Positions 2,772 to 32,500 of a stretch of DNA of 32,500 bases are shown piece by piece. The stretch comes from Bacteroidetes bacterium 41-46 (lineage in GTDB: Bacteria > Bacteroidota > Bacteroidia > Bacteroidales > UBA932): the NCBI GenBank assembly GCA_001897515.1, contig MKTA01000027.1:1-32500 (forward strand). Reading direction: 5' to 3'. The position numbers and the translations under genes are program-made. Numbering within the stretch: the first letter of the stretch is position 1; each line of letters begins with the position of its first letter. The notes below the pieces were generated by a model. That model worked only from the letters and a program-made list of their open reading frames with translations. It searched no databases and was not told the origin of the DNA.

Positions 2772-2797
2772 CTACCCGGGAATAACACATTGGTTGT
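2772..2797 (+). repeat. Relic of the 60-bp spacer repeat
   Basis: CTACCCGGGAATAACACATTGG resembles the junction of two spacer repeat units (CTACCGGGAATTACATCACTG), matching 11 of 12 bases over CCGGGAATAACA. Together with the conserved bases before the second tRNA-Ala it suggests that this region derives from an rRNA spacer. Confidence 0.5.
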
Positions 2798-2815
2798 TTT
2801 ATTCCTCTTTGACTA

Positions 2816-2980
2816 TTTTTTGATTCGTCTTTTTAAAGCTAGCTTTTCAGGCTCATCTGCAATTTGCTTTTTTCTTTTCTTTGCTTATCTTTGCGCTCTC
2901 TTACACGGGGAATTAGCTCAGTTGGCTAGAGCACCTGCTTTGCAAGCAGGGGGTCATCGGTTCGACTCCGATATTCTCCA
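2816..2980 (+). repeat. Duplicated tRNA-Ala block, copy 2
   Basis: Decayed copy of 1881-2046. The tRNA is unchanged, while the upstream flank has substitutions and small indels and has lost the left arm of the 12-bp stem. Confidence 0.85.
2907..2980 (+). tRNA. tRNA-Ala (anticodon TGC), copy 2
   Basis: Base-for-base identical to the copy at 1973-2046 over 74 nucleotides, with the same cloverleaf and anticodon TGC. It has its own terminator. No rRNA gene adjoins it. Confidence 0.96.
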
Positions 2981-2996
2981 CTTAGATTGAATAAAA

Positions 2997-19432: not shown

Positions 19433-21430
19433 CTACTCCTCTTTTTTAGCTCTTAGGCTGTCCCAAGCAAGATATGCAATCAATATAAGATACATGACAA
19501 GAGCCAGTATTTCGGCACCTCTTGACTCCATCCACTCTGTTCTCAGCAAATTCACCCCTCCGAATCTGATTATTGCGCTGACAACACCCATAAGTGCTCC
19601 TCCCGCAATGAATCCTGATGCCAGAAGTGTACCGCGATCTTTTCTGGCTGTATTCAATGCCTGATCTTTGCTTCTTGTTGATACAAACCATGCAATCGCA
19701 CCGCCGGCCAGAAGAGGAAGGTTAAGCTCAAGCGGGATAAACATTCCAAGAGAGAAAGCCAGTGCGGGGACACCCAGGAAGGTAAGGGCGACAGCAATAA
19801 CAGCCCCGATTCCGTAAAGGATCCATGGGGCTCCGCCACCTGACATCAGTGGCTCAATTACTGCAGCCATCGCATTTGCCTGAGGGGCCACGAGAGCATG
19901 TTCACCAGTAAATCCATATGTTTTATTGAGGATTATCATAACTCCGCCAACAGTTGCCGCAGCAACCAAGGTTCCCAGAAATTTCCACTGTTGTTGTTTT
20001 GCAGGTGTTGTCCCCAGCCAGTAACCAATTTTTAAATCTGTAATAAATGCACCTGAAACGGATAGCGCAGTACATACAACACCACCAATAATTAACGCTG
20101 CCGTCATACCTGCGGTACCCTTCAATCCGCTTGCAACCATTACAACCGAAGCCAGAATGAGGGTCATAAGGGTCATTCCGCTTACAGGGTTTGTTCCAAC
20201 AATGGCAATGGCATTTGCCGCAACAGTTGTGAAGAGGAATGCAATAACAGCCACAACAACAAGGGCAATTACCGCATGGAGTAGATTGTCAACAACACCA
20301 AGGTAGAAGAAAATAAATGTTACTATAAGGGTTGCAATAATTCCAATTGCAATTATCTTCATGGAGATATCCCTTTGAGTTCTTATTTCGTTCTTCTCTA
20401 TTTTTGTTTTGCCACCCAGCTCTTTGGCTGCGAGTCCAAAGGCACTCTTGATTATGCCGGAACTTTTTATAATTCCGATTACTCCGGCTGTAGCAATACC
20501 ACCAATACCTATATGTCTTGCGTAGTTTCTGAATATCTCCTCTGCAGACATGCTTCCTACAGTCTGAGCAAGTCCTGAATTCATTAAATCCAGAACCTGA
20601 TCACCAAAAATCACATTCATTAAAGGGATTATTACAAACCATACCAGCATAGATCCAAGGCTTATAATAAATGAGTATTTTAGCCCGATAATGTAACCCA
20701 ATCCCAGAACTGCTGCTCCGATATTTATCTTAAATACAAGTTTTGCTTTATCTGCAATAGCTACCCCTATAGGGGCAACTCTTGTTGTAAAGACCTCTGA
20801 CCACAATCCGAAAGTTGAGACAATAAAATCATATGCTCCGCCTATTAAGCCACTCACCAAAAGTAGCTTGGCTCCCTTTCCGCCTGTCTCTCCGCTGACA
20901 AGAACCTGAGTAGTAGCTGTTGCTTCCGGGAATGGATACTTCCCATGCATCTCCTTAACAAAATATTTTCTGAATGGAATAAGGAATAGTATTCCAAGCA
21001 CACCCCCAAGCAGGGAACTTAAGAAGACCTTTCCAAAGTCAACAGTCAGGTCTGGATATTTTGCCTGTAAAATATAAAGAGCCGGAAGTGTGAAAATTGC
21101 ACCTGCCACTATTGCACCAGAACTGGCGCCGATTGATTGTATAATAACATTCTCCCCAAGAGCATTCTTTCTTTTAAGCGCACCGGAGATCCCCACTGCA
21201 ATTATTGCAATTGGGATTGCAGCCTCGAATACCTGCCCAACCTTTAACCCCAGATATGCAGCGGCAGCAGAAAAAATAATTGTCATTAAGATACCCATCG
21301 TAACAGACCAGGGAGTAACCTCCGGGTATCTCTTTTCAGGTGACATAAGTGGTTTATAATCTTCGCCTTCTCTGAGCTCTCTGTATGCGTTTTCAGGTAG
21401 CCCTTTAGGTTTGCTTTCCTTTATTTCCAT
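19433..21430 (-). CDS. OPT family oligopeptide transporter
   Basis: A large polytopic membrane protein (665 residues) of the oligopeptide transporter family. After a polar N-terminus (about 1-40, YRELREGEDYKPLMSPEKRYPEVTPWSV being typical) come many membrane segments: GILMTIIFSAAAAYLGLKVG (47-66), NVIIQSIGASSGAIVAGAIF (94-113), and further Gly/Ala-rich spans to the end. Loop motifs include GKYPFPEATATTQVL near 168-182. Substrate is probably small peptides, though some OPT members move metal chelates. It is the first gene of the operon OPT-zupT-pepT-ybjQ-patB, with gaps of 4, 22, 9 and 8 nt. A TATCTTTG promoter box lies 21 nt upstream. Confidence 0.93.
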   Translation of the reverse strand: MEIKESKPKGLPENAYRELREGEDYKPLMSPEKRYPEVTPWSVTMGILMTIIFSAAAAYLGLKVGQVFEAAIPIAIIAVGISGALKRKNALGENVIIQSIGASSGAIVAGAIFTLPALYILQAKYPDLTVDFGKVFLSSLLGGVLGILFLIPFRKYFVKEMHGKYPFPEATATTQVLVSGETGGKGAKLLLVSGLIGGAYDFIVSTFGLWSEVFTTRVAPIGVAIADKAKLVFKINIGAAVLGLGYIIGLKYSFIISLGSMLVWFVIIPLMNVIFGDQVLDLMNSGLAQTVGSMSAEEIFRNYARHIGIGGIATAGVIGIIKSSGIIKSAFGLAAKELGGKTKIEKNEIRTQRDISMKIIAIGIIATLIVTFIFFYLGVVDNLLHAVIALVVVAVIAFLFTTVAANAIAIVGTNPVSGMTLMTLILASVVMVASGLKGTAGMTAALIIGGVVCTALSVSGAFITDLKIGYWLGTTPAKQQQWKFLGTLVAAATVGGVMIILNKTYGFTGEHALVAPQANAMAAVIEPLMSGGGAPWILYGIGAVIAVALTFLGVPALAFSLGMFIPLELNLPLLAGGAIAWFVSTRSKDQALNTARKDRGTLLASGFIAGGALMGVVSAIIRFGGVNLLRTEWMESRGAEILALVMYLILIAYLAWDSLRAKKEE

Positions 21431-21451
21431 AATAAGTTTCAGTTAATCTCT

Positions 21452-21459
21452 CAAAGATA
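21452..21459 (-). promoter_or_regulatory. -7 promoter element of the OPT operon
   Basis: TATCTTTG on the minus strand fits TAnnTTTG and ends 21 nt before the OPT start. It lies 22 bp from the oppositely directed box of the arginine leader, so the upstream parts of the two promoters must overlap. Confidence 0.55.
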
Positions 21460-21481
21460 TGAAAAATATGAATTATTCTTT

Positions 21482-21489
21482 TACCTTTG
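21482..21489 (+). promoter_or_regulatory. -7 promoter element of the arginine operon leader
   Basis: TACCTTTG fits TAnnTTTG. The expected transcription start is only a few bases downstream, so the leader ORF start at 21498 would have a 5' UTR of just a few nucleotides. No clear TTTG at -33. Confidence 0.55.
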
Positions 21490-21497
21490 CACCCCAT

Positions 21498-21578
21498 ATG
21501 AATTCAAGAGGCAATCATATCAATTTAAGCAAAAAGCACAGACACGTCCGACGATGTGTCCTTGCGGACTTTTCATAA
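21498..21578 (+). CDS. Putative Arg-rich leader peptide of the arginine operon
   Basis: A 26-codon ORF with ATG at 21498 and TAA at 21576-21578, between the promoter box and the first arg gene. The peptide includes KKHRHVRR at residues 12-19; Arg is at residues 4, 15, 18 and 19 and His at 7, 14 and 16. Codons 18 and 19 are consecutive CGA, which is scarce in this window, where Arg is mostly AGA or AGG. Leader peptides rich in the end product amino acid control many biosynthetic operons by ribosome stalling; Arg codons ahead of a complete arginine operon fit that logic. The ORF is embedded in a foldable RNA (21510-21611). Translation has not been shown and no family is known to me. Confidence 0.5.
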   Translation: MNSRGNHINLSKKHRHVRRCVLADFS

Positions 21579-21653
21579 CAATCTGCTTAAGATTGCCCGG
21601 TGCCCTGCGCCATCACAATAACCCCAGTATCCACATATTACCCCGTTTTTAAG
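21510..21653 (+). promoter_or_regulatory. Structured leader RNA of the arginine operon, attenuator candidate
   Basis: Seen in sequence: CAATTTAAGCA (521-531 of the 21-kb block, i.e. 21521-21531) pairs with TGCTTAAGATTG (21584-21595) as an 11-bp stem with one bulged G. GGCAATC (21510-21516) can instead pair with GATTGCC (21591-21597). Within the enclosed loop, GACAC/GTGTC (21541-21545/21556-21560) and GTCCG/CGGAC (21546-21550/21565-21569) interlock, so they are either alternatives or a pseudoknot; GTCC/GGAC (21558-21561/21566-21569) is a third option, followed by TTTT. A hairpin GGTGC/GCGCC lies at 21599-21611. The Arg codons fall inside the main stem, so a stalled ribosome would open it. No strong intrinsic terminator is evident; a T5 run is at 21646-21650, just before the first gene. 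Confidence 0.5.
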
Positions 21654-22196
21654 ATGAATGTCAGCATTGTTGTGGCAAATTCAAGCCATGCTGTCTATGC
21701 AGAGAGAATCTGCGAACTTATGTTTATCTCCGCACAGGAGAGAGGCACCGGTATTGCCAGAAGATCACCTGAATATATTGCAGGAAAAATGAGAGACGGT
21801 AAGGCCGTAATAGCAATTGATCAGGGAGAAGCTGTAGGTTTTGCATATATTGAGACCTGGAGCCATTGCAAATTTGTTGCAAACTCCGGCCTGATAGTCT
21901 CTCACTCTCACAGAAATACAGGGCTTGCCAGGAGAATTAAAGAGAGAGTTTTCAACCTCTCAAGAGAGCTCTACCCTGAGTCAAAAATATTCAGCATCAC
22001 CACCGGTTTGGCTGTCATGAAAATTAACTACGAGTTGGGCTTCAGACCAGTCACATTTTCAGAATTGACTAACGATCCGGATTTCTGGAAGGGTTGTGAA
22101 GGTTGCCGAAATTACGATATACTTTTAAGAAATAACCACAGGATGTGTCTTTGTACAGGCCTTTTGTACGACCCATCCTATAAATCAATAAGATAA
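21654..22196 (+). CDS. GNAT acyltransferase, probable first enzyme of arginine synthesis
   Basis: A 180-residue GNAT protein that would acylate glutamate, with acetyl-CoA or, given the succinylornithine transcarbamylase in this operon, succinyl-CoA. The CoA-binding segment is SHSHRNTGLARRIKERV (about 101-117, RNTGLA). A Cys-rich C-terminus (CEGCRNYDILL near 144-154 and MCLCTGLLYDP near 161-171) is distinctive. I chose ATG 21654; a GTG at 21600 in frame would add 18 residues drawn from the leader RNA. It is the first structural gene of the arginine operon; argG begins 2 nt later. Substrate is inferred from position; it is not similar by eye to classical ArgA, which has an amino acid kinase domain. 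Confidence 0.82.
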   Translation: MNVSIVVANSSHAVYAERICELMFISAQERGTGIARRSPEYIAGKMRDGKAVIAIDQGEAVGFAYIETWSHCKFVANSGLIVSHSHRNTGLARRIKERVFNLSRELYPESKIFSITTGLAVMKINYELGFRPVTFSELTNDPDFWKGCEGCRNYDILLRNNHRMCLCTGLLYDPSYKSIR

Positions 22197-22198
22197 TA

Positions 22199-23389
22199 AT
22201 GAAAGAGAGAGTTGTTCTTGCATTCAGCGGAGGGCTGGATACATCTTTTTGCATACCTTACCTTAGTAATGAAAAGGGTCTTGAGGTTCATACCGTTATG
22301 GTAAATACTGGGGGATTTTCCAAAGAGGAGGAGAGGCAGATTGAACAGAGAGCCCTTTCATTGGGAGCAGCATCGCACAAGAGCGTTGATGCGTCAGAAG
22401 AGTATTACAGAAAAGGGATACGATACCTTATATTCGGGAATGTGCTTAAAAATGGAACCTATCCGCTCTCTGTAAGCTCAGAGAGGGTATTCCAGGCCCT
22501 TGCAGTACTGGATGAGGTCAAGAGACTTGGAGCGAATTATGTTGCACACGGAAGTACCGGTGCAGGTAATGATCAGGTTAGATTTGACCTTGTTTTTGAG
22601 GTGCTGGCCCCCGAAGTTAAGATAATTGCTCCCATCAGGGAGCTGTCATTGAGCAGGGCTCAGGAGATAGAATATCTCTCAAAAAACGGGTGCAACCTCT
22701 CTTGGGAGAAGGCAAAATACTCAATCAACCAGGGTCTTTGGGGGACCAGTATAGGTGGTTCAGAGACTCTCACCGCATCAGGAGTCCTCCCGGAGGAGGC
22801 CTATCCCTCTCCACTGAAGGTAAATCAAAGGCAGAAAATTAAAATTGGTTTTGAGAAAGGGGAGCCTGTCTCACTGGACGGTGAAACAATGAATCCTGTA
22901 GATCTTATTAAAACCCTCTCTCAGATTGCCTCACGATACGCTATAGGAAGAGACGTGCATGTTGGTGATACAATTATTGGAATTAAGGGCAGGGTAGCCT
23001 TTGAGGCGGCTGCTCCAATGATAATAATCAAAGCTCATCACTTGCTGGAGAAACATACTCTTACAAAGGGTCAGCTATACTGGAAAGAACAGATGGCCGG
23101 ATGGTATGGGCAGCTTATGCATGAAGCTCAATACCTAGATCCATTGGCAAGAAACATTGAGAACTTCCTTGAGGATACCCAAAAGAGCGTTACAGGAGAG
23201 GTAGAGGTGGAGCTTATGCCATATCATTTCTCTATTTTGGGATGCTCTACAGATTTTGACTTGATGAGTTCAGACTTTGGACAGTACGGTGAGAAAAACT
23301 CATCATTTACAGGCGAGGATGTGATTGGATTCACCAAGGTTTTGGCAAACCCTTTGAAAATATATTACTCAGTACATAAAAATGGTTAA
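22199..23389 (+). CDS. argG: Argininosuccinate synthase
   Basis: Joins citrulline and aspartate with ATP to form argininosuccinate. The 396-residue protein has the PP-loop AFSGGLDTS (8-16), NGTYPLSVSSERVFQ (85-99), AHGSTGAGNDQVRFDL (116-131), APIRELSLSRAQEIEYL near 143-159 and WGTSIGGSETLT near 179-190. The S in AHGSTGAGND, where many relatives have C, recurs in Bacteroides proteins as I recall. It overlaps argC by 8 bp. Confidence 0.97.
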   Translation: MKERVVLAFSGGLDTSFCIPYLSNEKGLEVHTVMVNTGGFSKEEERQIEQRALSLGAASHKSVDASEEYYRKGIRYLIFGNVLKNGTYPLSVSSERVFQALAVLDEVKRLGANYVAHGSTGAGNDQVRFDLVFEVLAPEVKIIAPIRELSLSRAQEIEYLSKNGCNLSWEKAKYSINQGLWGTSIGGSETLTASGVLPEEAYPSPLKVNQRQKIKIGFEKGEPVSLDGETMNPVDLIKTLSQIASRYAIGRDVHVGDTIIGIKGRVAFEAAAPMIIIKAHHLLEKHTLTKGQLYWKEQMAGWYGQLMHEAQYLDPLARNIENFLEDTQKSVTGEVEVELMPYHFSILGCSTDFDLMSSDFGQYGEKNSSFTGEDVIGFTKVLANPLKIYYSVHKNG

Positions 23390-24353
23390 GGTAGCTATAG
23401 CCGGAGCAACCGGATACACAGGAGGCGAGCTGGTCAGATTGCTGATAAATCATCCGCAGGTGGACTTAAGGTGGCTCTTCAGCACCTCTCTTGCCGGCGA
23501 GAGCGTTTCAAGGATACACAGAGATCTCTGCGGAGAGTCAAATCTGAGATTTAGTGATAATATAGGAGAGCCTGACATACTTTTTCTCGCTTTGGGACAC
23601 GGACTTTCCAGAGAATTTCTTAACAGGGGGCTCTCCGATAAGTGCAGAGTAATAGATCTGGGAAACGACTTCAGGATAGATTCTGAATACGGGAATGACA
23701 AATTTGTGTATGGTCTTAGCGAGCTATTTGATGACAACATCTCCAAAGCAAGACTCGTTTCAAATCCCGGCTGTTTTGCCACAGCGGTAGAGCTGGCACT
23801 TGCGCCGCTTGCCAAAGAGAGACTCCTTAGGAATGAGATTCATATTCATGCCATTACAGGCTCTACCGGGGCAGGAAGATCCCTCTCTCACACGTCTCAT
23901 TTTAGTTACAGAGCGGGCAATGTGTCAATTTACAAGCCTTTTATCCATCAACACCTTGCAGAAATTGAGATGAGCCTTGAGTCAATTTCTGGATTGAGAA
24001 TGCCAGCAATAAATATGATTCCGGTAAGGGGAGATTTTACCAGAGGAATTCTTGCAAGTATTTATACTGAAATTGATGAAAATCAAACTGTTGACAAGAT
24101 TAGGGGGCTCTTTTCTGATTTATATTCCGACTCTCCGTTTGTGCACATATCTGATGAGGTCCTGAGTCTTAAAGAGGTAGTAAATACAAATAAGGCCCTT
24201 CTTCATATTGAGAGACATGGCAAATATGTATATATAACATCCATTATTGATAATCTTCTGAAGGGGGCTTCTGGTCAGGCTGTTCAGAATATGAACATAA
24301 TGTTTGGATTTCCGCAGGATTTGGCTCTAAAACTTAAAGGAACAGCCTTTTAA
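23382..24353 (+). CDS. argC: N-acyl-gamma-glutamyl-phosphate reductase
   Basis: NADPH-dependent reduction of N-acylglutamyl phosphate to the semialdehyde. The 323-residue product has the Rossmann GATGYTGGE (8-16), the catalytic C131 in SNPGCFATA (127-135), and HIHAITGSTGAGRSLS (about 148-163) followed by the substrate-side segment HFSYRAGNVSIYKPFIHQH. The acyl group is probably succinyl, from the downstream transcarbamylase. It overlaps argG by 8 bp and ends 2 nt before argD. Confidence 0.96.
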   Translation: MVKVAIAGATGYTGGELVRLLINHPQVDLRWLFSTSLAGESVSRIHRDLCGESNLRFSDNIGEPDILFLALGHGLSREFLNRGLSDKCRVIDLGNDFRIDSEYGNDKFVYGLSELFDDNISKARLVSNPGCFATAVELALAPLAKERLLRNEIHIHAITGSTGAGRSLSHTSHFSYRAGNVSIYKPFIHQHLAEIEMSLESISGLRMPAINMIPVRGDFTRGILASIYTEIDENQTVDKIRGLFSDLYSDSPFVHISDEVLSLKEVVNTNKALLHIERHGKYVYITSIIDNLLKGASGQAVQNMNIMFGFPQDLALKLKGTAF

Positions 24354-24355
24354 AG

Positions 24356-25489
24356 ATGAAAAATTTTGAAGTTTACAAATTATGGCCGGTAGAGCTGGCT
24401 AAAGGTCTCGGAGCAAAGCTGTGGGACAAGGATGGCAAAGAGTATCTGGATATGTATGGCGGACATGCTGTTATATCTATTGGGCACTCGCACCCCGGAT
24501 ATGTATCTGCAATTGCAGATCAGTTATCAAAACTGGGGTTCTACTCCAACTCAGTTATAAACTCTTTGCAGAGTGAACTAGCATCAAAAATGGGGGAGAT
24601 ATCGGGGTATCAGGACTACTCTCTCTTCATGTGTAATTCCGGAGCAGAGGCAAATGAGAATGCTATAAAGCTGGCCTCCTTCCAAACAGGTAAGAGTCGT
24701 TTACTTGCTTTCAAGGGAGCTTTTCACGGTCGTACCTCGGGTGTTGTTGCAGCTACAGATAATAAGGCTATCAGGGCACCATACAACAGAACGTCAAAAG
24801 TTACATTTATACCTTTGAATGATATATCTGCAGCTGAGAGAGAGCTGGCAAAGGGAGATTATGCAGCGGTAATAATTGAGGGAATACAGGGGGTTGCGGG
24901 GATAATTATGCCTCATGACAAGTTTCTGACAGATCTAAGACGCTTATGTGATAAGCATAAGGTTATTCTGATACTTGATGAGATCCAGAGCGGATGCGGA
25001 AGAACAGGCAGATATTTTGCGCACCAGTTTTCCGGAATCAGACCAGATATGATTACTGTCGCCAAGGGTATAGCAAATGGTTTTCCTGTCGGGGCAGTTT
25101 TCATCTCTCCAAAAATAGGTGCTGTTGCGGGGATGCTCGGGACTACATTCGGAGGAAACCATCTGGCATGTGCTGCTGCTCTTGCCGTAATTGATGTAAT
25201 GGAAAGAGAGGAGTTGATGAAAAATGCAACCATAATTGGAGATTATATTGCAGAGAATATAGGAAATTCTGTTTCGGTAGCAGAGGTAAGGGGAAGGGGA
25301 CTTATGTTGGGTATTGAGCTAAAAGAGGGGTATGAGAAAATTAAGGAGAGACTTCTTTTTCAAAAATTTGTCTTCACCGGCTCTGCCGGCAGCAATGTCA
25401 TCAGGATCCTGCCTCCTCTAAATTTAACGATTAAAGAGGCAGATATATTCATTTCAGCATTTAAAGAATTAGAAAAAGAGATACAATGA
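24356..25489 (+). CDS. argD: Acetylornithine/succinylornithine aminotransferase
   Basis: PLP enzyme that transaminates N-acylglutamate semialdehyde with glutamate to give N-acylornithine. 377 residues. Motifs: FMCNSGAEANENAIKLA (91-107), FHGRTSGVVAATD (123-135), IIEGIQGVAG (173-182), LDEIQSGCGRTG (207-218) and the PLP lysine K237 in TVAKGIANGFPVGA (234-247). The stop overlaps the start of argF' as ATGA. Confidence 0.96.
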   Translation: MKNFEVYKLWPVELAKGLGAKLWDKDGKEYLDMYGGHAVISIGHSHPGYVSAIADQLSKLGFYSNSVINSLQSELASKMGEISGYQDYSLFMCNSGAEANENAIKLASFQTGKSRLLAFKGAFHGRTSGVVAATDNKAIRAPYNRTSKVTFIPLNDISAAERELAKGDYAAVIIEGIQGVAGIIMPHDKFLTDLRRLCDKHKVILILDEIQSGCGRTGRYFAHQFSGIRPDMITVAKGIANGFPVGAVFISPKIGAVAGMLGTTFGGNHLACAAALAVIDVMEREELMKNATIIGDYIAENIGNSVSVAEVRGRGLMLGIELKEGYEKIKERLLFQKFVFTGSAGSNVIRILPPLNLTIKEADIFISAFKELEKEIQ

Positions 25490-26439
25490 GAGTTTTTACT
25501 AAAATGTCAGATATAGGTACAGTCGCAAATGCGCTGGACCTTGCCTGGGATGTTAAAATCAATCCCTTTAAAGATAAAGAGCTGGGAAGAGACAAAACAC
25601 TCCTGATGATCTTCTTTAATTCAAGCCTGAGAACCAGATTAAGCACACAAAAGGCGGCAATGAATTTAGGAATGAATGTTATAGTCTTAGATATAAATCA
25701 AGGAGCCTGGAAGCTGGAGAGTGAACTGGGTGTAGTAATGGATGGAGATAAACCTGAGCATATTTTAGAGGCTATTCCTGTTATGGCCTCATATTGTGAC
25801 ATTATTGGGGTCAGGTCATTCGCAAACTTAATGAGCAGAGAGCAGGACTATTCAGAGGAGATAATAAGTCAGTTTATCAGGCTATCAGGTAAGCCGGTAT
25901 TCAGTATGGAGTCAGCTATACGGCATCCGTTGCAGAGTTACGCAGACGTTATAACAATAGAGGAATATAAAAAGGTGCAAAGACCCAAAGTAGTTCTTAC
26001 ATGGGCTCCTCACCCCAGGGCACTTCCCCAGGCAGTTGCAAACTCTTTTGCAGAGTGGATAAACAATACGGAATATGAGTTTGTAATAACTCATCCGCAA
26101 GGATATGAGCTTGCAGATGAATTTACGGCAAATGCCAGGGTTGAGTACGACTGGAAAAGGGCGTATGAAGGGGCACATTTTATTTATGCGAAAAACTGGT
26201 CGGCCTATACGGGGAATAATTATGGCAAGATACTCCATATGGATAGATCATGGACAGTGGATAGCGAGAAGATGGCTTTGACTGATAATGCCTTCTTTAT
26301 GCATTGTCTGCCGGTGAGGAGGAACATGATAGTAACTGATGAGGTTATTGACTCTGAATCATCAATTGTTGTCCACCAGGCTTCAAACAGAGTAGTCTCA
26401 GCTCAGGCTGTTATCAGAGAGATGTTGAAAACCCTTTAA
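25486..26439 (+). CDS. argF': N-succinylornithine carbamoyltransferase ArgF'
   Basis: Transfers carbamoyl from carbamoyl phosphate to an N-acylated ornithine. The 317-residue protein has the carbamoyl-phosphate site FFNSSLRTRLS (43-53, in place of STRT of ordinary OTCases), the HPLQS motif of the ATCase/OTCase family (147-151), TWAPHPRALPQAVANS (about 169-184), and HCLPVRRN (about 271-278). Residue 90 is Pro in DGDKPEHILEA. In published work on Bacteroides fragilis this position (P90) sets specificity for N-succinylornithine, while Glu at the matching site of Xanthomonas enzyme gives acetylornithine specificity. I therefore predict the succinyl pathway. Overlaps argD by 4 bp; argB begins 10 nt later. 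Confidence 0.93.
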   Translation: MRVFTKMSDIGTVANALDLAWDVKINPFKDKELGRDKTLLMIFFNSSLRTRLSTQKAAMNLGMNVIVLDINQGAWKLESELGVVMDGDKPEHILEAIPVMASYCDIIGVRSFANLMSREQDYSEEIISQFIRLSGKPVFSMESAIRHPLQSYADVITIEEYKKVQRPKVVLTWAPHPRALPQAVANSFAEWINNTEYEFVITHPQGYELADEFTANARVEYDWKRAYEGAHFIYAKNWSAYTGNNYGKILHMDRSWTVDSEKMALTDNAFFMHCLPVRRNMIVTDEVIDSESSIVVHQASNRVVSAQAVIREMLKTL

Positions 26440-26449
26440 GAAAAATGAT

Positions 26450-27226
26450 ATGAAAGTGCTCAATGTTGTTAAAATAGGTGGCAATGTAGTTGATAATCCT
26501 GATTCGCTGGAAAGGTTTTTGAAAATGCTGAACTTGATGGAGGGTCCCAAGATTCTTGTCCATGGAGGAGGTGTTCTGGCAAGCGAGATGTCAGCTAAGC
26601 TAGGGATTGAAACCATTATGAGAGAGGGTAGGAGAGTTACTGATCTTGAGACTTTGAAGATTTGCACAATGGTATATGCCGGATGGATAAACAAAAGTAT
26701 TGTGGCAGCTCTTCAGAAGATTGGATGCAACTCTCTTGGTCTCTGTGGTGCAGATGCTGCAGTTGTTCCTGCAAAGAGACGCTCTCCAGAGCCAGTTGAT
26801 TTTGGCTATGTTGGAGATGTTAATCCTGCAGAGGTTGACTCAGGATTTATAAATAGCCTGCTGGGAAGAGGTATTACACCAGTTTTTGCTCCTCTGACTT
26901 ATGAGAGAAGTGGGAGCATCCTGAATACAAACGCAGATACAATGGCTTCATCTCTTGCAATAGCGATGTCTCACCACTACTATACCAGGCTGATATTCTG
27001 CTTTGAAAAGAGAGGTGTTCTGAGTGACTTTGCAGATGAGGAGAGCGTCATACCTCTTATAAATACCGGCTCTTATTTGCGACTTAAAAGTAGCGGCACT
27101 GTATCCGCTGGTATGATACCAAAGATTGACAACGCCTTTTCTGCCCTTAGTAGTGGAGTATCAGAGGTATTTATAAAGCATTGGTCTGAAATACTCGTTA
27201 ATGGGGGTACAATGTTGAAAATATAA
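26450..27226 (+). CDS. argB: N-acylglutamate kinase ArgB
   Basis: Phosphorylates N-acylglutamate, step two of the pathway. The 258-residue amino acid kinase has K8 and G10-G11 (VVKIGGNVVD), the HGGG loop (38-41), REGRRVTD (58-65), LNTNADTMAS (158-167) and K225 in GMIPKIDNA (221-229). N-acetyl kinases usually have LNINAD; LNTNAD could reflect a different acyl group, but this is a guess. Start overlaps nothing; the stop overlaps the argE start by one base (TAATG). Confidence 0.95.
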   Translation: MKVLNVVKIGGNVVDNPDSLERFLKMLNLMEGPKILVHGGGVLASEMSAKLGIETIMREGRRVTDLETLKICTMVYAGWINKSIVAALQKIGCNSLGLCGADAAVVPAKRRSPEPVDFGYVGDVNPAEVDSGFINSLLGRGITPVFAPLTYERSGSILNTNADTMASSLAIAMSHHYYTRLIFCFEKRGVLSDFADEESVIPLINTGSYLRLKSSGTVSAGMIPKIDNAFSALSSGVSEVFIKHWSEILVNGGTMLKI

Positions 27227-28302
27227 TGACAGAATACGATTCAAATAGAATTGCTCTTGCTGCTGCAGAGCTTTTGAGAAAAATGGTAGTAATTCCATCA
27301 TTCTCAGGCGAGGAGTCCGAGGTTGCAGATTTGATTGAGGCAAGGCTTAGGAGCGAAGGGGTTAATGTAAACAGGTGGGGAAATAATTTATGGGCACTGG
27401 CTTACCAGAGCGATGACTGTATGCCTGTTATTATGATGAACTCTCACATTGATACTGTACGAGCCTCATCATCATATACATTTGATCCGTTTAACCCGGA
27501 TGGGGAGTCGGGTAAAGTAAGAGGTCTGGGCAGTAACGATGCAGGAGCATCGGTTGTTTGTATGACTGAGAGTTTTCTTCAGCTCAGGAGGGAGCGGCTT
27601 CCATTTAATATTATGCTGGCACTTAGTGCAGAAGAGGAGAACTCCGGCCCGGGCGGGATGAGAGCACTATTTCCTCTTTTACCGAAGCCTGCCTGCGCAA
27701 TTATAGGGGAGCCGACAAAAATGGAGGCTGCAATAGCTGAAAGGGGACTTCTTGTTATTGATGCCGTTGCTAAAGGAGTGAGCGGTCATGCTGCCAGAGA
27801 GGAGGGTGTAAACGCAATACTGGCTGCTTGCAGAGATATTGAGAAGATAATGTCATTCAAATTTAATAAAGAATCCAATCTTTTTGGAGCGGTCAAGGTG
27901 AGCATTACCAGGATAGAGGCTGGCAGAGAGCATAATGTAATACCTGATAAGTGTCATTATACACTTGATATCAGGCCTAATGAGCTTTATTCAAATGAAG
28001 AGATATTCAGCACTCTGGAGGGGCTTTTAGAGAGTACTCTTAAAGCAAGATCTTTCAGTAATAAATGTTCTATGACCCCTGAGGGGCATGAACTTATTCA
28101 ATGTGCCAAGAGATGCGGAATAAAGAGTTATGTATCTCCAACAACTTCAGATTGGATGCGGATATCTGTCCCTGCTATAAAAATGGGACCGGGTGATTCT
28201 TCAAGGTCTCATAAGGCAGATGAGTATGTTACTGTTGAGGAGTTGAGGATGGGTATTGAGGGTTATATGAATTATATTAAGAATTTAAATCTGCAGAGAT
28301 GA
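27226..28302 (+). CDS. argE: M20 deacylase, ArgE-like, predicted N-succinylcitrulline desuccinylase
   Basis: Removes the N-acyl group. Because the transcarbamylase in this operon acts on acylated ornithine, the natural substrate should be N-succinylcitrulline rather than acetylornithine. The 358-residue M20 zinc hydrolase has the ligands in MMNSHIDTV (about 77-85), GLGSNDAGAS (about 102-111), LSAEEENSG (about 138-146, general base Glu), IIGEPTKME (about 160-168) and a C-terminal RSHKADE. AAREEGVNAI lies in the dimerisation lid. It overlaps argB by one base and argH by 4 (ATGA). Confidence 0.92.
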   Translation: MTEYDSNRIALAAAELLRKMVVIPSFSGEESEVADLIEARLRSEGVNVNRWGNNLWALAYQSDDCMPVIMMNSHIDTVRASSSYTFDPFNPDGESGKVRGLGSNDAGASVVCMTESFLQLRRERLPFNIMLALSAEEENSGPGGMRALFPLLPKPACAIIGEPTKMEAAIAERGLLVIDAVAKGVSGHAAREEGVNAILAACRDIEKIMSFKFNKESNLFGAVKVSITRIEAGREHNVIPDKCHYTLDIRPNELYSNEEIFSTLEGLLESTLKARSFSNKCSMTPEGHELIQCAKRCGIKSYVSPTTSDWMRISVPAIKMGPGDSSRSHKADEYVTVEELRMGIEGYMNYIKNLNLQR

Positions 28303-29597
28303 ATTTACTTTGGAGCAAAGGGGGAGACCCCCACCTAAAGGTGAGAGAATTTACAGTTGGAAGAGATCGCGAACTTGATATGCTTTTGGCAGAGAGCGAT
28401 ATTGAGGGTTCTATCGCCCATGTAAATATGATTAGCACCATTGGGCTGCTTAACGAAAATGAGGCTGAGACCCTTGTTAAGGAGCTTGAAATTATGGCAG
28501 ATGAAGTGAAGAGAGGTGAGTTTGTATTAGAGGATGGTGTAGAGGATATTCACTCTCAGGTAGAGATTAATCTCACTAAAAGAGTTGGAGAGCTTGGGAA
28601 AAAAATCCACTCAGGGAGGTCCAGAAATGATCAGGTATTGGTGGACATTAAACTATTTCTAAAAAAGGAGATTAGAAAAATACTTAATGAAACAGACTCT
28701 CTGTTTGATACCCTAATTTCACTTAGCGAAGAGAACAGAGATGTGCTTATGCCGGGATATACACACAGCCAGATTGCAATGCCCTCCTCATTTGGACTGT
28801 GGCTGGGAGGCTATGCAGAGACACTCGCAGATGATTTATGGTCCCTTCTTGCCGCCTGGAATATTGCAGATCAGAATCCTTTGGGTTCTGCAGCCGGATA
28901 TGGCAGTTCTTTTCCGCTTGACAGGGAGATGACAACATCGCTGCTTGGCTTTGGCAATCTTCATTATAACTCTGTCGCAGCACAGATGAGCCGGGGAAAG
29001 AGCGAAAGGGCACTCGCTTTTGCCTTATCATCAATAGCCTCTACATTGAATAAGCTGGCTTCTGACTCTATCCTCTTTATGAACGGCAATTATGGATTCA
29101 TATCCTTTCCTGACGATGTTACAACAGGCTCAAGCATAATGCCTCACAAGAAAAATCCTGATGTCTGGGAGCTCGTCAGAGCTCATTCTAACAGAATTCA
29201 AAGCCTCCCAAACGAGATAGCTCTTCTTACAACTAACCTTACACATGGTTACCACAGAGATTTTCAGCTTCTGAAGGAGATACTGTTTCCGGCTTTGAAA
29301 TCATCACAAAATATAATTGAGATGTCAAACTTCATGTTGGGAAAAATGGTCGTTAACAAAGAGATACTTAATGACAATAAGTATGATTACCTGTTTACTG
29401 TTGAGGAGGTAAACAGAAGAGTTATCTCAGGAATCCCCTTCAGAGATGCATACAGAGAGGTTGGCAATGAGGTAGAGATGGGTACTTTTAGTGCAGAAAA
29501 GAGGATTGCCCACACTCACAAGGGGAGTATAGGCAATCTTTGCACAAGCGAAGTAGTTTCAAAGTTTAAGTCAATCGCATCAATGTTTGGCAAGTAG
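28299..29597 (+). CDS. argH: Argininosuccinate lyase
   Basis: Splits argininosuccinate into arginine and fumarate, the last step. 432 residues, slightly short of the usual 450-460. Motifs: LLWSKGGDPHLKVREFTVGRD near the N-terminus, HSGRSRNDQV (104-113), MPGYTHSQIAMPSS (151-164, T155-H156), NPLGSAAGYGSSFPLDR (193-209) and the signature GSSIMPHKKNPD (277-288) with the catalytic Ser. It ends the eight-gene operon; its stop is 8 nt from the convergent yeiH-like stop and I see no hairpin terminator between them. Confidence 0.97.
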   Translation: MNLLWSKGGDPHLKVREFTVGRDRELDMLLAESDIEGSIAHVNMISTIGLLNENEAETLVKELEIMADEVKRGEFVLEDGVEDIHSQVEINLTKRVGELGKKIHSGRSRNDQVLVDIKLFLKKEIRKILNETDSLFDTLISLSEENRDVLMPGYTHSQIAMPSSFGLWLGGYAETLADDLWSLLAAWNIADQNPLGSAAGYGSSFPLDREMTTSLLGFGNLHYNSVAAQMSRGKSERALAFALSSIASTLNKLASDSILFMNGNYGFISFPDDVTTGSSIMPHKKNPDVWELVRAHSNRIQSLPNEIALLTTNLTHGYHRDFQLLKEILFPALKSSQNIIEMSNFMLGKMVVNKEILNDNKYDYLFTVEEVNRRVISGIPFRDAYREVGNEVEMGTFSAEKRIAHTHKGSIGNLCTSEVVSKFKSIASMFGK

Positions 29598-29605
29598 AGA
29601 GTTGA

Positions 29606-30859
29606 TTAGAATCCAATAGAGAATTCATATTTGCCAAATAGCAGGAATGCTATTGCCAGTGTCAGCAATACATTGAATGTTTGTGCAATAAGAAATGCAG
29701 CAGTATATCTGTTGTTCTCTTTTCCAAAGACCTTTCTGAAATCGGTCTCTAGGCCAATGGCTACAAATGCAACAGAGAAGAGTGTCTCTCTCAGGGCCTT
29801 TGCTGCTCCGCTAAGCCCTTTTGCTGTTGCCGGTTCAAGAAGGAAGCTGAAAACCACTGATGCCAGCATAAATCCGATAACAAATTTTGGAAACCTGTCC
29901 CATAAAACAGATGCAGAGGGTCTGATCTCTTTATTAGATCCCTTTAGAGACCAGTATATTGAAATAGCAAAGGCTGCAACTCCAAGTAGGGCATTTTGCG
30001 AAGCCTTTATAATAACGCTTTGTGATTCAGCGATATCTCCAAGGAATTTACCTGAAGCTACGACCGCTCCTGTTGTGTCAATTGTTCCACCAAGCCATGC
30101 TCCTGCAACCTCCTGAGTCAGGCCAAGCAGTTGTGCAAGATAGGGCATTATATACATCATCGGAACAGCAACAACCAACACCAGAGAAACCACAAATGAC
30201 AGTTTCTTTGAGTCCCCTTTCATAGCTCCGCTGGCAGCAATAGCCGCTGATACTCCGCAAATAGACACGGCAGTTGATAGCAGTACCCCCATCTCCTTAT
30301 CTATCCCCATCTTTTTAGCGAGCCAGAATGAGAAGTTCCATACCAGAACAATTACAATTATAGCCTGTACCATTCCCAGAGATCCGGCCTTCATAATCTC
30401 TCCAAAAATAATTGTCGTCCCCAAAACAACAAGGCCTGCCTTTATAAAGAATTCACTTCTGGCGGCTGGTTCCAGCCATTTTGGAAGACCAAAAAAGTTT
30501 CTGATAATCAGCCCTATTGCCACAGAGAAAAATACAGCCTCAAAACCGACCTGTTTTATTGGAGCGAGAGTGCTAATATATTGAGCTAAAAATGAGAGCC
30601 CGTAAATAAATATGAAAGAGGCAGGAAACCATTTCATCTTTACATCAAGCAACCATAAACCCACATAGCTAAGGCCAAAAATTATAAAAAATTTAGTCAC
30701 CTCAAAGGGAACCTTTGCAAACCAGGCGGGGTAGCCATCAGGAAATTGATACTTCACCTTGCCTAATGAGGGTACAAAAATTACAAGAATGACTAGTATT
30801 GCACCCATAATGGTGGCAATCCAATCCTCATTCTTGAATTGCAAGAAGAATTTTTTCAT
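29606..30859 (-). CDS. YeiH/UPF0324 family putative sulfate exporter
   Basis: A 417-residue inner-membrane protein with about 10-11 hydrophobic segments. Family motifs are VSICGVSAAIAASGA (about 197-211), AGAWLGGTIDTTGAV (about 249-263), SQNALLGVAAF (about 282-292) and LSGAAKALRETLFSVAFVAIGLETDFRK near the C-terminus. YeiH-type proteins are annotated as putative sulfate exporters, mostly without direct assay. Convergent with argH, with only 8 nt between stops. A TATATTTG box and an 18-bp palindrome lie upstream, suggesting control by a DNA-binding regulator. Confidence 0.9.
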   Translation of the reverse strand: MKKFFLQFKNEDWIATIMGAILVILVIFVPSLGKVKYQFPDGYPAWFAKVPFEVTKFFIIFGLSYVGLWLLDVKMKWFPASFIFIYGLSFLAQYISTLAPIKQVGFEAVFFSVAIGLIIRNFFGLPKWLEPAARSEFFIKAGLVVLGTTIIFGEIMKAGSLGMVQAIIVIVLVWNFSFWLAKKMGIDKEMGVLLSTAVSICGVSAAIAASGAMKGDSKKLSFVVSLVLVVAVPMMYIMPYLAQLLGLTQEVAGAWLGGTIDTTGAVVASGKFLGDIAESQSVIIKASQNALLGVAAFAISIYWSLKGSNKEIRPSASVLWDRFPKFVIGFMLASVVFSFLLEPATAKGLSGAAKALRETLFSVAFVAIGLETDFRKVFGKENNRYTAAFLIAQTFNVLLTLAIAFLLFGKYEFSIGF

Positions 30860-30895
30860 TTTGATTAAGTTTTAGTAATTGTCGTTGAGTTGACA

Positions 30896-30903
30896 CAAAT
30901 ATA
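30896..30903 (-). promoter_or_regulatory. -7 promoter element of the yeiH-like gene
   Basis: TATATTTG on the minus strand fits TAnnTTTG and lies 37 nt before the start codon. About 19 nt farther upstream the strand reads TTTT, a near match to the -33 element TTTG. Confidence 0.6.
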
Positions 30904-30918
30904 CCGTAAAAATATTTA

Positions 30919-30936
30919 TAGTAAAACGGTTTACTA
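30919..30936. promoter_or_regulatory. Palindromic operator candidate at the yeiH-like promoter
   Basis: TAGTAAA-ACGG-TTTACTA has 7-bp inverted arms around a 4-bp spacer. Its centre is about 28 bp upstream of the -7 box centre, so it covers the -33 region: a typical place for a repressor, or for an activator site. The regulator is not in the window. Confidence 0.5.
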
Positions 30937-30945
30937 ATATTATTT

Positions 30946-30979
30946 AAAAAAAGCTAACCAAATCTCTTTAGGTTAGCTT
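30946..30979 (-). terminator. Rho-independent terminator after the dipeptidase gene
   Basis: On the minus strand AAGCTAACC/GGTTAGCTT forms a 9-bp stem with an 11-nt loop, followed by a run of seven T. It starts just after the dipeptidase stop and separates that gene from the yeiH-like gene. Confidence 0.88.
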
Positions 30980-30986
30980 CTCTCTG

Positions 30987-32500
30987 TTACGGAGTTCTAA
31001 GTCTGTCACCGGCACTGTTTTTTACAGCCCTCTTCCATATTTCTGTATATCCCGGGAAATCGGGTGTGGGTGGTATTTTATCAGAGTGGCCATTATTCTT
31101 GAATGTCCCGTCTTGATTTTGCTTTTTTGTGTTGCCGTCAATATATTTCACCAGCAGATACTCGTCCAGCTTTTTCCATTTCCGGAATAGTTCATTTGCA
31201 GATTTAACCGAGAACTCTGTTGTCAGATCAGATACCTTCTCTGGGTTACTCTTGAGCATTTCAACAGCATTTTTGTCAATATCGGCCACCCTTGCCATAA
31301 TCTCCTTCTCATGGGTATCAATTACAGACCTCACCTCTGCGCCTATATGGTTGTATCTAAGGTATGCAAACTGAGCTATTCTGTTTGTTATCCAGAACAT
31401 AGAAGTAGGCGAGTACTCCAGCATTGAGCCATTACCCAAAGCATAGTTCTGTGATATTGCCTTGGAAGAGGTATATATTGGTGTAAGGGGAGATGTTGCC
31501 GCATCGTCAACGGCAAACCAGAAAATTCCGCCAATCTCATTTGGAATATTTGGACGAGACTCTCCGACAAACCAGAAGCCGGTCTGTTGAGTAGCGATAG
31601 CTCGTTCATTTATATACTTTTCTCCGTCAACATCAAATCCCATAGGTCTCCATCTGTATGGAAGCGAGTTTCCGCCAGCTCCTATATCCAGCGTCATATC
31701 CATAGCTGTTCCCTCATAGTGATCCCTCATCATATCTGCAACATCCTTCACGCTTAGTTTTGCTTTTGCCTTAACATAAAGAGGCATTCTGTTCCTGAGG
31801 TTGTGACCAAGTGCATAATCCAGATATTTACTCATATCCTCAGAAGAGTGTTTATTAAAAAAACTCCAGACTCTTGCATCGCAACCTCTTACTGTGGCTC
31901 CGTCAGCAGGTCCGTAAGTGTCTGAAAAGCTGAAAGAGTCATCATCTCCGCTGTAAAGCCCCTGCTCTCTGGCGTGTGAGATAACATCCGGAGCGTATAT
32001 GCAATTTTCCGGGTCGTTTTTGGGAAATGTAGTTATTCTTGCCTGATTCGCATGGGCCGATATATATCCGTCCGGTATCCTTATGGCAACCCAAACGGCA
32101 CCTTTATTCACATTCTTTCCGTTTACCATCTTTGGTGCCTTCCCAATTATCTCAAGGAACCAAACCTCTTTTTTGTCGGCAATTGAGATAGACTCACCAG
32201 AGGAGGCGTAACCATACTCATTCGCAAGAGTGGTTATGACATTTATAGCTTCACGTGCAGTCTTTGCTCTCTGGAGTGCGATATACATTAGTGAACCATA
32301 GTCCACAATGCCTTGAGGATCAAACTGAGTTTCCACTCCACCCCATGTGGATTCTCCAATTACCACCTGATGTTCATTCATATTGCCTACAACATTATAT
32401 GTGTGAGAAGCCTGAGGAATTTTTCCCAAATACCTCTCTTTACCCCATTCAAAAACATCAAGCATTGCCCCTTTAGGATATTTTGCGGCAGGGTAGTGGA
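30987..32500 (-). CDS. Family C69 dipeptidase, 5' end beyond the window
   Basis: Ntn-hydrolase dipeptidase of the C69/U34 (PepD) family. The frame stays open to the right edge: codons before the internal ATG at 32465 read HYPAAKYPKGA, matching the family sequence ahead of MLDVFEW, so that ATG is not the start. The catalytic N-terminal Cys and any signal peptide lie outside the window. Visible family segments: GKIPQASHTYNVVGNMNEHQVVIGESTWGG-type region near 32365-32425, SSGESISIADKKEVWFLEIIG, TYGPADGATVRGCDARVWSFFN (near 31860-31925), and PYRWRPMGFD. At least 503 residues. A terminator follows. Members in related bacteria are usually exported; here that cannot be checked. Confidence 0.93.
   Translation of the reverse strand, partial: HYPAAKYPKGAMLDVFEWGKERYLGKIPQASHTYNVVGNMNEHQVVIGESTWGGVETQFDPQGIVDYGSLMYIALQRAKTAREAINVITTLANEYGYASSGESISIADKKEVWFLEIIGKAPKMVNGKNVNKGAVWVAIRIPDGYISAHANQARITTFPKNDPENCIYAPDVISHAREQGLYSGDDDSFSFSDTYGPADGATVRGCDARVWSFFNKHSSEDMSKYLDYALGHNLRNRMPLYVKAKAKLSVKDVADMMRDHYEGTAMDMTLDIGAGGNSLPYRWRPMGFDVDGEKYINERAIATQQTGFWFVGESRPNIPNEIGGIFWFAVDDAATSPLTPIYTSSKAISQNYALGNGSMLEYSPTSMFWITNRIAQFAYLRYNHIGAEVRSVIDTHEKEIMARVADIDKNAVEMLKSNPEKVSDLTTEFSVKSANELFRKWKKLDEYLLVKYIDGNTKKQNQDGTFKNNGHSDKIPPTPDFPGYTEIWKRAVKNSAGDRLRTP

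What the first reader, a model, noticed from the sequence alone, without database searches (positions are those of the whole stretch)
21482..21653. Arg-rich leader peptide and switchable leader RNA ahead of the arginine operon
Between a TACCTTTG promoter box and the first arg gene lies a 26-codon ORF (21498-21578) whose peptide includes KKHRHVRR and whose Arg codons 18-19 are tandem CGA, rare in this window. The ORF is enclosed by a long-range stem (21521-21531 with 21584-21595) and has overlapping alternative pairings. A ribosome stalled at Arg codons 15-19 would cover or open the main stem. Leader-peptide attenuation is established for his, trp and similar operons, but most bacteria control arg genes through the ArgR repressor; an Arg leader in Bacteroidota would be new to me. 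The mechanism is unclear: no strong terminator is visible, and the freed right arm could pair with bases just before the first start codon (21586-21592 with 21647-21653).
Basis: partly seen in the sequence, partly recalled or inferred. Interest (0 to 1): 0.85.

Follow-up and report, generated by a model that had tools for sequence, protein, structure and literature searches.

The report
Arginine leader peptide replacing ArgR repressor
The arginine-making genes in this bacterium are preceded by a short, widely conserved reading frame with rare arginine codons side by side, which is predicted to let the ribosome itself sense arginine supply in a group of bacteria where the usual arginine repressor gene was not found.

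Summary
The 26-codon ORF (21498-21578) ahead of the arginine operon is real and conserved. In the window's family 97 of 119 loci with the same first gene carry an upstream ORF with at least 3 Arg in 12 codons (shuffles mean 24.8; reverse strand 29). Picked blind, by promoter box and first ATG, 84 of 95 ORFs are Arg-rich. Outside the family it is 41 of 59 Bacteroidota loci (shuffles 10.5; reverse strand 23). No ArgR was found in 36 family genomes searched. Leaders favour Arg codons that neighbouring genes use little: CGA here (54% against 3%), CGG elsewhere (67% against 8%). A long-range helix covaries in two lineages. His leaders of the same genus have a strong intrinsic terminator in 9 of 9; arg leaders have none that strong in 22, though weaker hairpins with U-rich tails exceed shuffles in three of seven clades. 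Best reading: ribosome stalling at Arg codons is predicted to keep the operon on by blocking an early stop of transcription, through a weak terminator or Rho. No call tests function. New variant of amino-acid leader-peptide control.

The parts
21482..21489 (+). TACCTTTG, promoter -7 box of the Bacteroidota type (type recalled, not from a call)
   Evidence: a TA(C/T)CTTTG box starts about 15-16 nt before the leader ATG in the 21 genus loci with upstream sequence (one search aligned 23 loci chosen for having the box, 21 of the genus)
21498..21578 (+). Leader ORF, 26 codons, MNSRGNHINLSKKHRHVRRCVLADFS
   Evidence: conserved in the family. Most genus relatives outside the window's subgroup stop right after VRRCA; here the stop lies 7 codons after the last Arg
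21549..21554 (+). Tandem rare Arg codons CGA CGA (codons 18-19), predicted stall site
   Evidence: CGA 12 of 431 Arg codons in window CDS; first R after V/I is CGA in 110 of 130 cases in family leaders
21510..21516 (+). Segment A, left arm of the long-range helix (GGCAATC)
21591..21597 (+). Segment D, right arm of the long-range helix (GATTGCC)
21524..21531 (+). Inner left arm of the long-range helix (TTTAAGCA)
   Evidence: fold; pairs with 21584-21591
21584..21591 (+). Inner right arm of the long-range helix (TGCTTAAG)
   Evidence: fold
21541..21560 (+). Hairpin formed by the V-R-R codons themselves: GACACGUC-CGAC-GAUGUGUC
   Evidence: core nearly invariant in the genus, so covariation says little
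21558..21574 (+). Small hairpin GUCC-UUGC-GGAC with tail UUUUC just after the Arg codons; in relatives UGCCU-AGGAA-GGGCA with a U-rich tail over the stop codon. Candidate weak terminator that a stalled ribosome would cover (inference)
   Evidence: Coordinates; relatives; the window's own copy does not pass the loose test (stem too short)
21579..21595 (+). Hairpin CAAUCU-GCUUA-AGAUUG after the stop codon, exclusive with the long-range helix
21599..21611 (+). Hairpin GGUGC-CCU-GCGCC, no U-tract after it
21604..21653 (+). C-rich, G-poor spacer before the first gene (18 C, 4 G in 21604-21645); possible Rho loading region (inference)
   Evidence: per-clade C/G ratios
21654..22196 (+). GNAT acetyltransferase, first gene of the arginine operon
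   Evidence: weak GNAT matches; found in 43 of 60 genomes from own to order level, own included
22199..29597 (+). argG, argC, argD, N-acetylornithine carbamoyltransferase, argB, argE/dapE-type deacylase, argH

Best explanation
The arginine operon in this window is preceded by a conserved 26-codon reading frame with tandem rare Arg codons, and it is predicted to work as an arginine sensor: a ribosome short of charged Arg-tRNA would stall on those codons and keep transcription running into the operon. Shown: the ORF is conserved with its Arg codons near the end of the frame (last Arg 0-2 codons before the stop in 122 of 138 leaders; 7 in the window itself), leaders favour Arg codons that neighbouring genes use little, the leader RNA is structured, a long-range helix between the start of the ORF and the spacer covaries in two lineages, ArgR was not found in the family genomes searched, and no terminator as strong as that of the his leader is present. 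Inferred: with arginine plentiful the ribosome finishes and leaves, hairpins over and behind the stop codon form and transcription ends early, through a weak terminator there or through Rho; with arginine scarce the stalled ribosome covers the end of the ORF and blocks that off-step. The direction of control and the off-step are not shown.
For: Conservation: 97 of 119 family loci, shuffles mean 24.8 max 31; 41 of 59 other phylum loci, shuffles mean 10.5 max 17; ArgR-bearing order relatives 1 of 11. ORFs chosen blind to Arg: 84 of 95 Arg-rich, next residue His 24 of 95; one ORF per genus, 12 of 15. ArgR: none in the own genome nor in 36 family genomes, 12 of 24 order genomes. Codons: genus set CGA 54% of leader Arg codons against 3% in following CDS; f46 CGG 67% against 8%; g46 CGA 64% against 2%; Flavobacteriaceae set CGT+CGC 86% against 17%. 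Stop-proximal Arg 122 of 138. Long-range helix: all 13 f46 leaders tested have 7-12 pairs starting at leader nt 19-23, p = 5e-5; genus set p = 3.5e-4. Leaders fold more stably than shuffles, clearly in f46, genus set, g39, g45 and Pedobacter type. Strict terminator test 0 of 22 arg leaders against 9 of 9 his leaders. Rho gene present. Start-region openness unchanged by stalling.
Against: No expression data. The reverse strand of the same regions also gives Arg-rich ORFs in 29 of 119 family and 23 of 59 phylum loci, so part of the phylum count is composition. In the window fold the long-range helix forms with and without a stalled ribosome, so it is not the switch by itself; it is not significant in g38, g46, the Flavobacteriaceae set, g45 or in the window's subgroup of 5 alone (p = 0.085). 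The g46 spacer is not C-rich (C/G 0.83), against Rho as a common step. A ribosome paused at the stop codon would cover the same hairpin as a stalled one. Selective-charging theory (PMC1183508, passages) lets the isoacceptor of a little-used codon stay charged. In g38 the commonest leader codon is CGT (53%), not rare there (21%). 14 of 119 family loci have no such leader even by eye.
Confidence: 0.64

Rival explanations
1. The leader makes an arrest peptide: the nascent chain ending in V/I-R-R (or R-R-R-P) would bind free arginine or ornithine in the ribosome tunnel and stall it at the stop codon when arginine is plentiful, turning the operon off.
For: Arg sits 0-2 codons from the stop in 122 of 138 leaders, as in stop-codon arrest systems (recalled). 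The V/I-R-R core resembles the HIRR core of the Salmonella speF leader ORF34 (PMC6386406, abstract and passages).
Against: Codon choice, not only residue choice, is biased, and the favoured codon differs by lineage. The residues around Arg differ widely (HVRRCA, RRRP, RIPRRR, VLVRI, RIRRRA). No Pfam match for 6 leader peptides (weak test for short peptides).
Confidence: 0.15
2. Attenuation by an ordinary intrinsic terminator, only a weak one: the small hairpin over the leader's stop with its U-rich tail (or, in g46, a hairpin near the operon start) ends transcription unless a ribosome covers it.
For: The loose test exceeds every shuffle in f46, genus set and g46; in the genus set the hairpin UGCCU-AGGAA-GGGCA with a U-rich tail recurs over the stop codon. 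The same genome uses a classical attenuator for his.
Against: Strict test 0 of 22 genus-set and 3 of 138 leaders in all. The f46 hits lie at scattered places; g38, g39, g45 and the Flavobacteriaceae set do not exceed shuffles. The window's own copy has a 4-pair stem.
Confidence: 0.13
3. The leader controls translation or stability of the operon mRNA rather than transcription: ribosome position would decide between folds that expose or hide the first start codon or an RNase site.
For: No strong terminator; Salmonella orf34 works partly this way (PMC6386406 abstract).
Against: Predicted openness of the start region does not change with a stalled ribosome in seven clades; the distance from leader stop to operon start is long (median 103.5 nt). 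Folding is a weak test and RNase sites were not examined.
Confidence: 0.13
4. The conserved GTCCGACG core is a DNA or RNA site for an unknown regulator, and the reading frame is incidental.
For: The core is nearly invariant at the nucleotide level in the genus set and self-complementary around CGAC.
Against: Outside the genus the nucleotides change while an Arg-rich frame stays open (RRRP, RIPRRR, RIRRRA); the Flavobacteriaceae set and f46 lack the core.
Confidence: 0.04

Closest known systems
Classical amino-acid leader-peptide attenuators (his, trp and others)
   Same: Short ORF with codons of the operon's own product, between promoter and first biosynthetic gene, in a structured leader
   Different: No strong intrinsic terminator; Arg codons at or near the end of the ORF and of little-used kinds; arg genes, for which the repressor ArgR is the usual regulator (recalled)
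speF leader ORF34/SpeFL of Salmonella and E. coli (DUF2618)
   Same: Two consecutive Arg codons in an upstream ORF, core HIRR against HVRR here, arginine-dependent, involves Rho (PMC6386406, abstract and passages)
   Different: Controls ornithine decarboxylase; its sensing Arg codons 12-13 are far from its stop; no Pfam match here
tna operon leader TnaC (recalled; PMC8429421 seen only as a search listing)
   Same: A ribosome held near the leader stop codon would keep Rho off the downstream RNA
   Different: TnaC senses free Trp and induces a catabolic operon
rbfL uORF of Staphylococcus aureus (PMC13009471, passages)
   Same: A rare Arg codon in a uORF senses arginine limitation
   Different: Stalling represses translation of a biofilm regulator by covering its ribosome site; not an arg operon
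Predicted leader-peptide attenuators of Flavobacterium psychrophilum (PMC9723704, section 19 and passages)
   Same: Same phylum, amino-acid biosynthesis operons

Membership tests
Ribosome-mediated (leader-peptide) attenuator, classical | Short ORF with codons cognate to the operon product directly upstream of the operon | tested here: met
Ribosome-mediated (leader-peptide) attenuator, classical | Strong intrinsic terminator between leader ORF and first gene | tested here: not met
   Strict test 0 of 22 in the genus set, 3 of 138 in all; the same test finds 9 of 9 his leaders. A loose test exceeds shuffles in 3 of 7 clades
Ribosome-mediated (leader-peptide) attenuator, classical | Mutually exclusive RNA structures set by ribosome position | tested here: inconclusive
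   Long-range helix covaries in two lineages but is predicted with and without a stalled ribosome in the window
Ribosome-mediated (leader-peptide) attenuator, classical | Expression rises when the amino acid is scarce | not testable with these tools
   Needs experiment
ArgR/ARG-box regulation | An ArgR gene in the genome | tested here: not met
   No match in the own genome (93% complete) or in 36 family genomes, several of them incomplete; control rings in 9 of 14 known genomes
SpeFL/ORF34 (DUF2618, PF10940) | Match to the Pfam domain | tested here: not met
   No Pfam family listed at max E 10 for 6 leader peptides (weak test for short peptides)
SpeFL/ORF34 (DUF2618, PF10940) | Position upstream of speF ornithine decarboxylase | tested here: not met
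   First gene is a GNAT followed by argG
Rho-dependent leader attenuators | Rho gene present | tested here: met
   TIGR00767, 630 bits in G000
Rho-dependent leader attenuators | C-rich, G-poor RNA downstream of the leader ORF | tested here: inconclusive
   C/G 5.55 in g45, 3.78 f46, 2.38 Flavobacteriaceae set, 2.33 g38, 2.0 genus set, 1.28 g39, 0.83 g46; seven other 5' regions of the window together 58 C, 47 G
Known Rfam element (T-box, riboswitch, other) | Match above gathering score | tested here: not met
   No leader match in the window or in 9 loci
Arrest peptide (TnaC, arginine attenuator peptide type) | Conserved peptide residues with free codon choice, stalling at the stop | tested here: inconclusive
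   Arg near the stop is conserved but codon choice is biased; stalling not testable

The most novel reading that the evidence does not exclude
Across much of Bacteroidota, arginine synthesis is run without ArgR by a leader-peptide switch that needs no strong terminator: each lineage has put its own little-used Arg codons at the end of a short ORF, so that the stalled ribosome itself shields the RNA behind the stop codon from Rho or another termination step, helped by a covarying long-range helix.
Probability: 0.38. Interest if true: 0.86.

Novelty: new variant of a known kind. Interest (0 to 1): 0.75.

Why it matters
Textbook bacterial arginine control is the ArgR repressor. Here a family in which no ArgR was found, and many distant members of the phylum, carry an Arg-codon leader at the operon beside which ArgR-bearing order relatives keep argR (9 of 12). 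That makes the swap of a protein regulator for a ribosome-read one directly testable. The contrast with the his leader of the same genome, which has a textbook terminator, points to a different or much weaker off-step. The lineage-by-lineage choice of little-used Arg codons offers natural material to test how codon rarity and tRNA charging set the sensitivity of such sensors.

Tried and rejected
Single-sequence folding gave z -1.45 and decided nothing. RNAduplex energies over broad regions gave p 0.012 (f46), 0.002 (genus set), 0.008 (g39) and 0.09-0.89 in five other clades, much of it unspecific pairing; the contiguous-helix test was used instead. A consensus scan of 20000-32500 was of no use (14 terminator-like sites against 9.8 in shuffles). 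Masking of the first start codon was set aside because predicted openness did not change. My first wording, that arg leaders have no terminator, was withdrawn: strong ones are absent, weak ones are not excluded; odds were moved for that. Rfam and Pfam gave no family for the leader. A second place with 3 mismatches to the leader core in the genome was not followed.

Choices that shape counts: leader picks for L009, L013, L182 and L118 were changed by hand after inspection, and start codons were then moved to the promoter box by rule. Clade sets were chosen by me after seeing the leaders and leave out near-identical or odd sequences. The 'genus set' of 17 is 16 of 21 genus leaders plus L007 of genus g12; the 22 are 21 of the genus plus L007. 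The f46 set is 13 of 15 leaders. Three family loci with under 200 nt upstream (L012, L065, L068) were left out of the 119. Of 60 non-own strong orthologs in the phylum sample 59 were fetched (G386 not). Of the 22 family loci below the Arg threshold, by eye 8 still hold a VR/VRR-type leader (L027, L063, L067, L082, L084, L091, L093, L126) and 14 do not; all 22 count as misses. Two counted as hits (L028, L029) are probably chance. ArgR was searched in 36 family genomes, not in the 299.

Literature: ten searches of an open-licence library; in their listings I saw no paper on an Arg leader ahead of the arg operon in Bacteroidota. Most subscription papers are missing, and a 2010 survey of attenuators (Lopatovskaya et al., seen only in the reference list of PMC4833913) was not looked up. 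Passages only were read of PMC13009471, PMC8632094, PMC4833913, PMC7366714, PMC2965389 and PMC1183508; section 19 and passages of PMC9723704; abstract and passages of PMC6386406.

Full report
What is there. The window carries, on the + strand, a promoter box TACCTTTG (21482-21489), a 26-codon ORF (21498-21578, MNSRGNHINLSKKHRHVRRCVLADFS), a 75-nt spacer and then a GNAT acetyltransferase gene (21654-22196) followed by argG, argC, argD, N-acetylornithine carbamoyltransferase, argB, an argE/dapE-type deacylase and argH. The Arg codons of the ORF are AGA (4), AGA (15), CGA (18) and CGA (19). In 26 CDS of the window CGA is 12 of 431 Arg codons and CGA-CGA never occurs.

Is it more than chance? The GNAT protein was found in 43 of 60 genomes from own to order level, 214 of 299 family genomes and 62 of 148 phylum genomes (own genome and one weak hit included). 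Of 119 family loci with at least 200 nt upstream, 97 hold an ATG ORF of 8-50 codons with at least 3 Arg in 12 codons; dinucleotide shuffles give a mean of 24.8 and at most 31, the reverse strand 29. The best other residue is Ser, 49 of 119. For 59 phylum loci outside the family the count is 41 against a shuffle mean of 10.5, maximum 17, and 23 on the reverse strand, so there part of the count is composition. Because that test looks for Arg, I repeated it blind: the first ATG within 25 nt of a TAnnTTTG box. 95 of 119 family loci have such an ORF and 84 of the 95 are Arg-rich; Arg makes 18.6% of residues and 37.0% of the last six; with one ORF per genus it is 12 of 15. In the phylum set only 9 of 59 loci pass the box rule, 7 of them Arg-rich.

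Leaders by lineage: window genus HRHVRRCA*; other family genera RVRR*, VRRRR*, RIRRRA*, VRRG...VLVRI*, RRVRS*; Flavobacteriaceae such as Allomuricauda nanhaiensis (L053) PRRRP*; an unnamed family f46 RIPRRR*; Pedobacter species a variant ending NYTPRI* or NFTPRI* with fewer Arg. The peptides differ; Arg towards the end is what they share. The last Arg is 0, 1 or 2 codons before the stop in 45, 53 and 24 of 138 leaders. The window is an exception (7 codons): in its subgroup the frame runs on past the point where the rest of the genus stops.

ArgR. No ArgR (PF01316) match in the own genome (93% complete) or in the 36 family genomes among 60 relatives; 12 of 24 order-level genomes have it, and in 9 of those 12 argR lies on the same contig and strand as the GNAT gene within about 1.6 kb. 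Upstream of argR, 1 of 11 loci holds an Arg-rich ORF (the twelfth had no upstream sequence). In the phylum sample 55 of 148 genomes have an ArgR match; of the 60 non-own genomes with a strong GNAT ortholog only G352 and G375 do, with 33.4 and 26.9 bits at a cut-off of 27 (the tool counts both as over it). So leader and ArgR tend to exclude each other, though the ArgR search covered only part of the family, and two order-level genomes (G039, G050) have the gene with neither.

Codon choice. Leaders favour Arg codons that the following genes use little: genus set CGA 54% against 3%; g46 CGA 64% against 2%; g38 CGA 37% against 2% (but its commonest is CGT, 53% against 21%); g45 CGA 33% against 4%; g39 CGA 39% against 8%; f46 CGG 67% against 8%; Flavobacteriaceae set CGT plus CGC 86% against 17% (18 to 76 leader codons a clade). 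In family leaders the first Arg after V or I is CGA in 110 of 130 cases. This points to decoding by a particular tRNA, or to RNA pairing by these letters, rather than to the residue alone.

RNA structure. Whole leaders fold more stably than shuffles, clearly in f46 (mean z -2.72), g39 (-2.55), g45 (-2.3), the Pedobacter type (-2.18) and the genus set (-2.05), borderline in g38, g46 and the Flavobacteriaceae set. A helix between the start of the ORF and the spacer was tested by pairing each leader's own halves against those of other species: in f46 all 13 have 7-12 contiguous pairs starting at leader nt 19-23 with different letters, p = 5e-5 (the limit of the test); in the genus set p = 3.5e-4 (16 genus leaders alone p = 0.0013; the window's subgroup of 5 alone p = 0.085); in g39 p = 0.03 (n = 5); not significant in g38, g46, the Flavobacteriaceae set and g45. 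Hairpins at or just after the stop recur: in the Flavobacteriaceae set CGCCC-GUAA-GGGUG across the stop and then a stem holding AGGUGAGUCC; in g38 stems GGGA/UCCC and GAAGA/UCUUC around the same loop CAGCAGAA.

How it may work. The his operon of the same genus has a leader with four to seven His in a row and, right before hisG, a stem of 11-16 pairs followed by a T-run in 9 of 9 usable loci (2 of 11 were not usable). The same strict search finds none in 22 arg leaders (21 of the genus) and 3 in 138 overall, two of which (L028, L029) are probably not true leaders. A loose search (stem of 5 or more, at least 5 U in 9) finds 34 of 70 and exceeds all ten shuffles in f46, the genus set and g46, not in g38, g39, g45 or the Flavobacteriaceae set. 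In the genus set these hits include a small hairpin over the stop codon, UGCCU-AGGAA-GGGCA with a U-rich tail; the window has a 4-pair version, GUCC-UUGC-GGAC-UUUUC. So the organism knows the classical attenuator and does not use a strong terminator here, but a weak one stays possible. Imposing a stalled ribosome does not change predicted openness of the first start codon. The spacer is rich in C and poor in G in several clades (C/G 5.55 in g45, 3.78 in f46, 2.0 in the genus set) but not in g46 (0.83), and Rho is encoded. My best reading is stalling at Arg codons near the end of the ORF that would block a termination step at or behind the stop codon, by Rho or by the weak hairpin. The direction, the response to arginine and the off-step are inferred; a ribosome paused at the stop codon would cover the same hairpin, which is a weak point of the model.

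Tension. Selective-charging theory (PMC1183508, passages) would let the isoacceptor of a little-used codon stay charged; a rare codon is a good sensor only if its tRNA is scarcer still. This is why the arrest-peptide rival keeps some weight, together with the likeness of HVRR to the HIRR core of the speF leader (PMC6386406).

Known or new. Leader-peptide control is a known kind. In Bacteroidota it was suggested for amino-acid operons of Flavobacterium psychrophilum (PMC9723704, section 19) and in general terms for Bacteroides thetaiotaomicron (PMC7366714, passages). In the listings of ten searches of the open library I saw no Arg leader ahead of an arg operon in this phylum. I file it as a new variant: a cognate leader peptide without a strong intrinsic terminator, with little-used Arg codons near its stop, standing where ArgR was not found.

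Noticed in passing
L222 (G000 contig 15, upstream of hisG) and L214-L218, L220, L221, L223: Textbook His leader peptide with HHHH and a strong intrinsic terminator before hisG in the same genome and genus.
   Followed up: yes
window 1-2981: 16S rRNA (cut at the contig end), tRNA-Ile, tRNA-Ala and a second tRNA-Ala at 2907, but Rfam lists no 23S rRNA in the window; either an unlinked 16S gene or a contig fault.
   Followed up: no
L090, L106, L107, L109, L113, L117, L118, L120, L121, L126, L127, L129, L132, L133: In genus g46 a second conserved element, about TTGCAATTGACAATCnnGGTTTGTCTTGCCrTTAGGG, lies between the leader and the operon and can fold as a hairpin; role unknown.
   Followed up: no
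L053, L054, L055, L056, L142, L143, L144, L152, L169, L182: In the Flavobacteriaceae set a hairpin with conserved AGGTG(A/T)GTCC inside a stem whose letters vary follows the stop.
   Followed up: partly
leader codons 5-8 in many lineages: H-I or Y-I (letters like CACATA or CATAT) recurs near codon 7 of leaders in distant lineages, next to the left arm of the long-range helix; seen by eye only.
   Followed up: no
window 21452-21459, - strand: A TATCTTTG box of the divergent OPT transporter gene lies 22 nt from the leader's box, so the two promoters nearly abut; similar letters stand there in many genus loci.
   Followed up: no
L024, L097, L099, L104, L114, L115, L119, L125, L130, L131, L137, L138, L140, L141: Family members (genera g5, g9, g39, g43, g46, g48) that have the GNAT gene without an Arg leader even by eye; how they control arginine genes is open, and some sit beside other genes.
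   Followed up: partly
L057-L060, L188, L195: Pedobacter-type leaders end NYTPRI or NFTPRI with few Arg and keep a nearly invariant GAGGAATTGATCCTC hairpin with AACCCAATTAACAAGAATA behind it.
   Followed up: no
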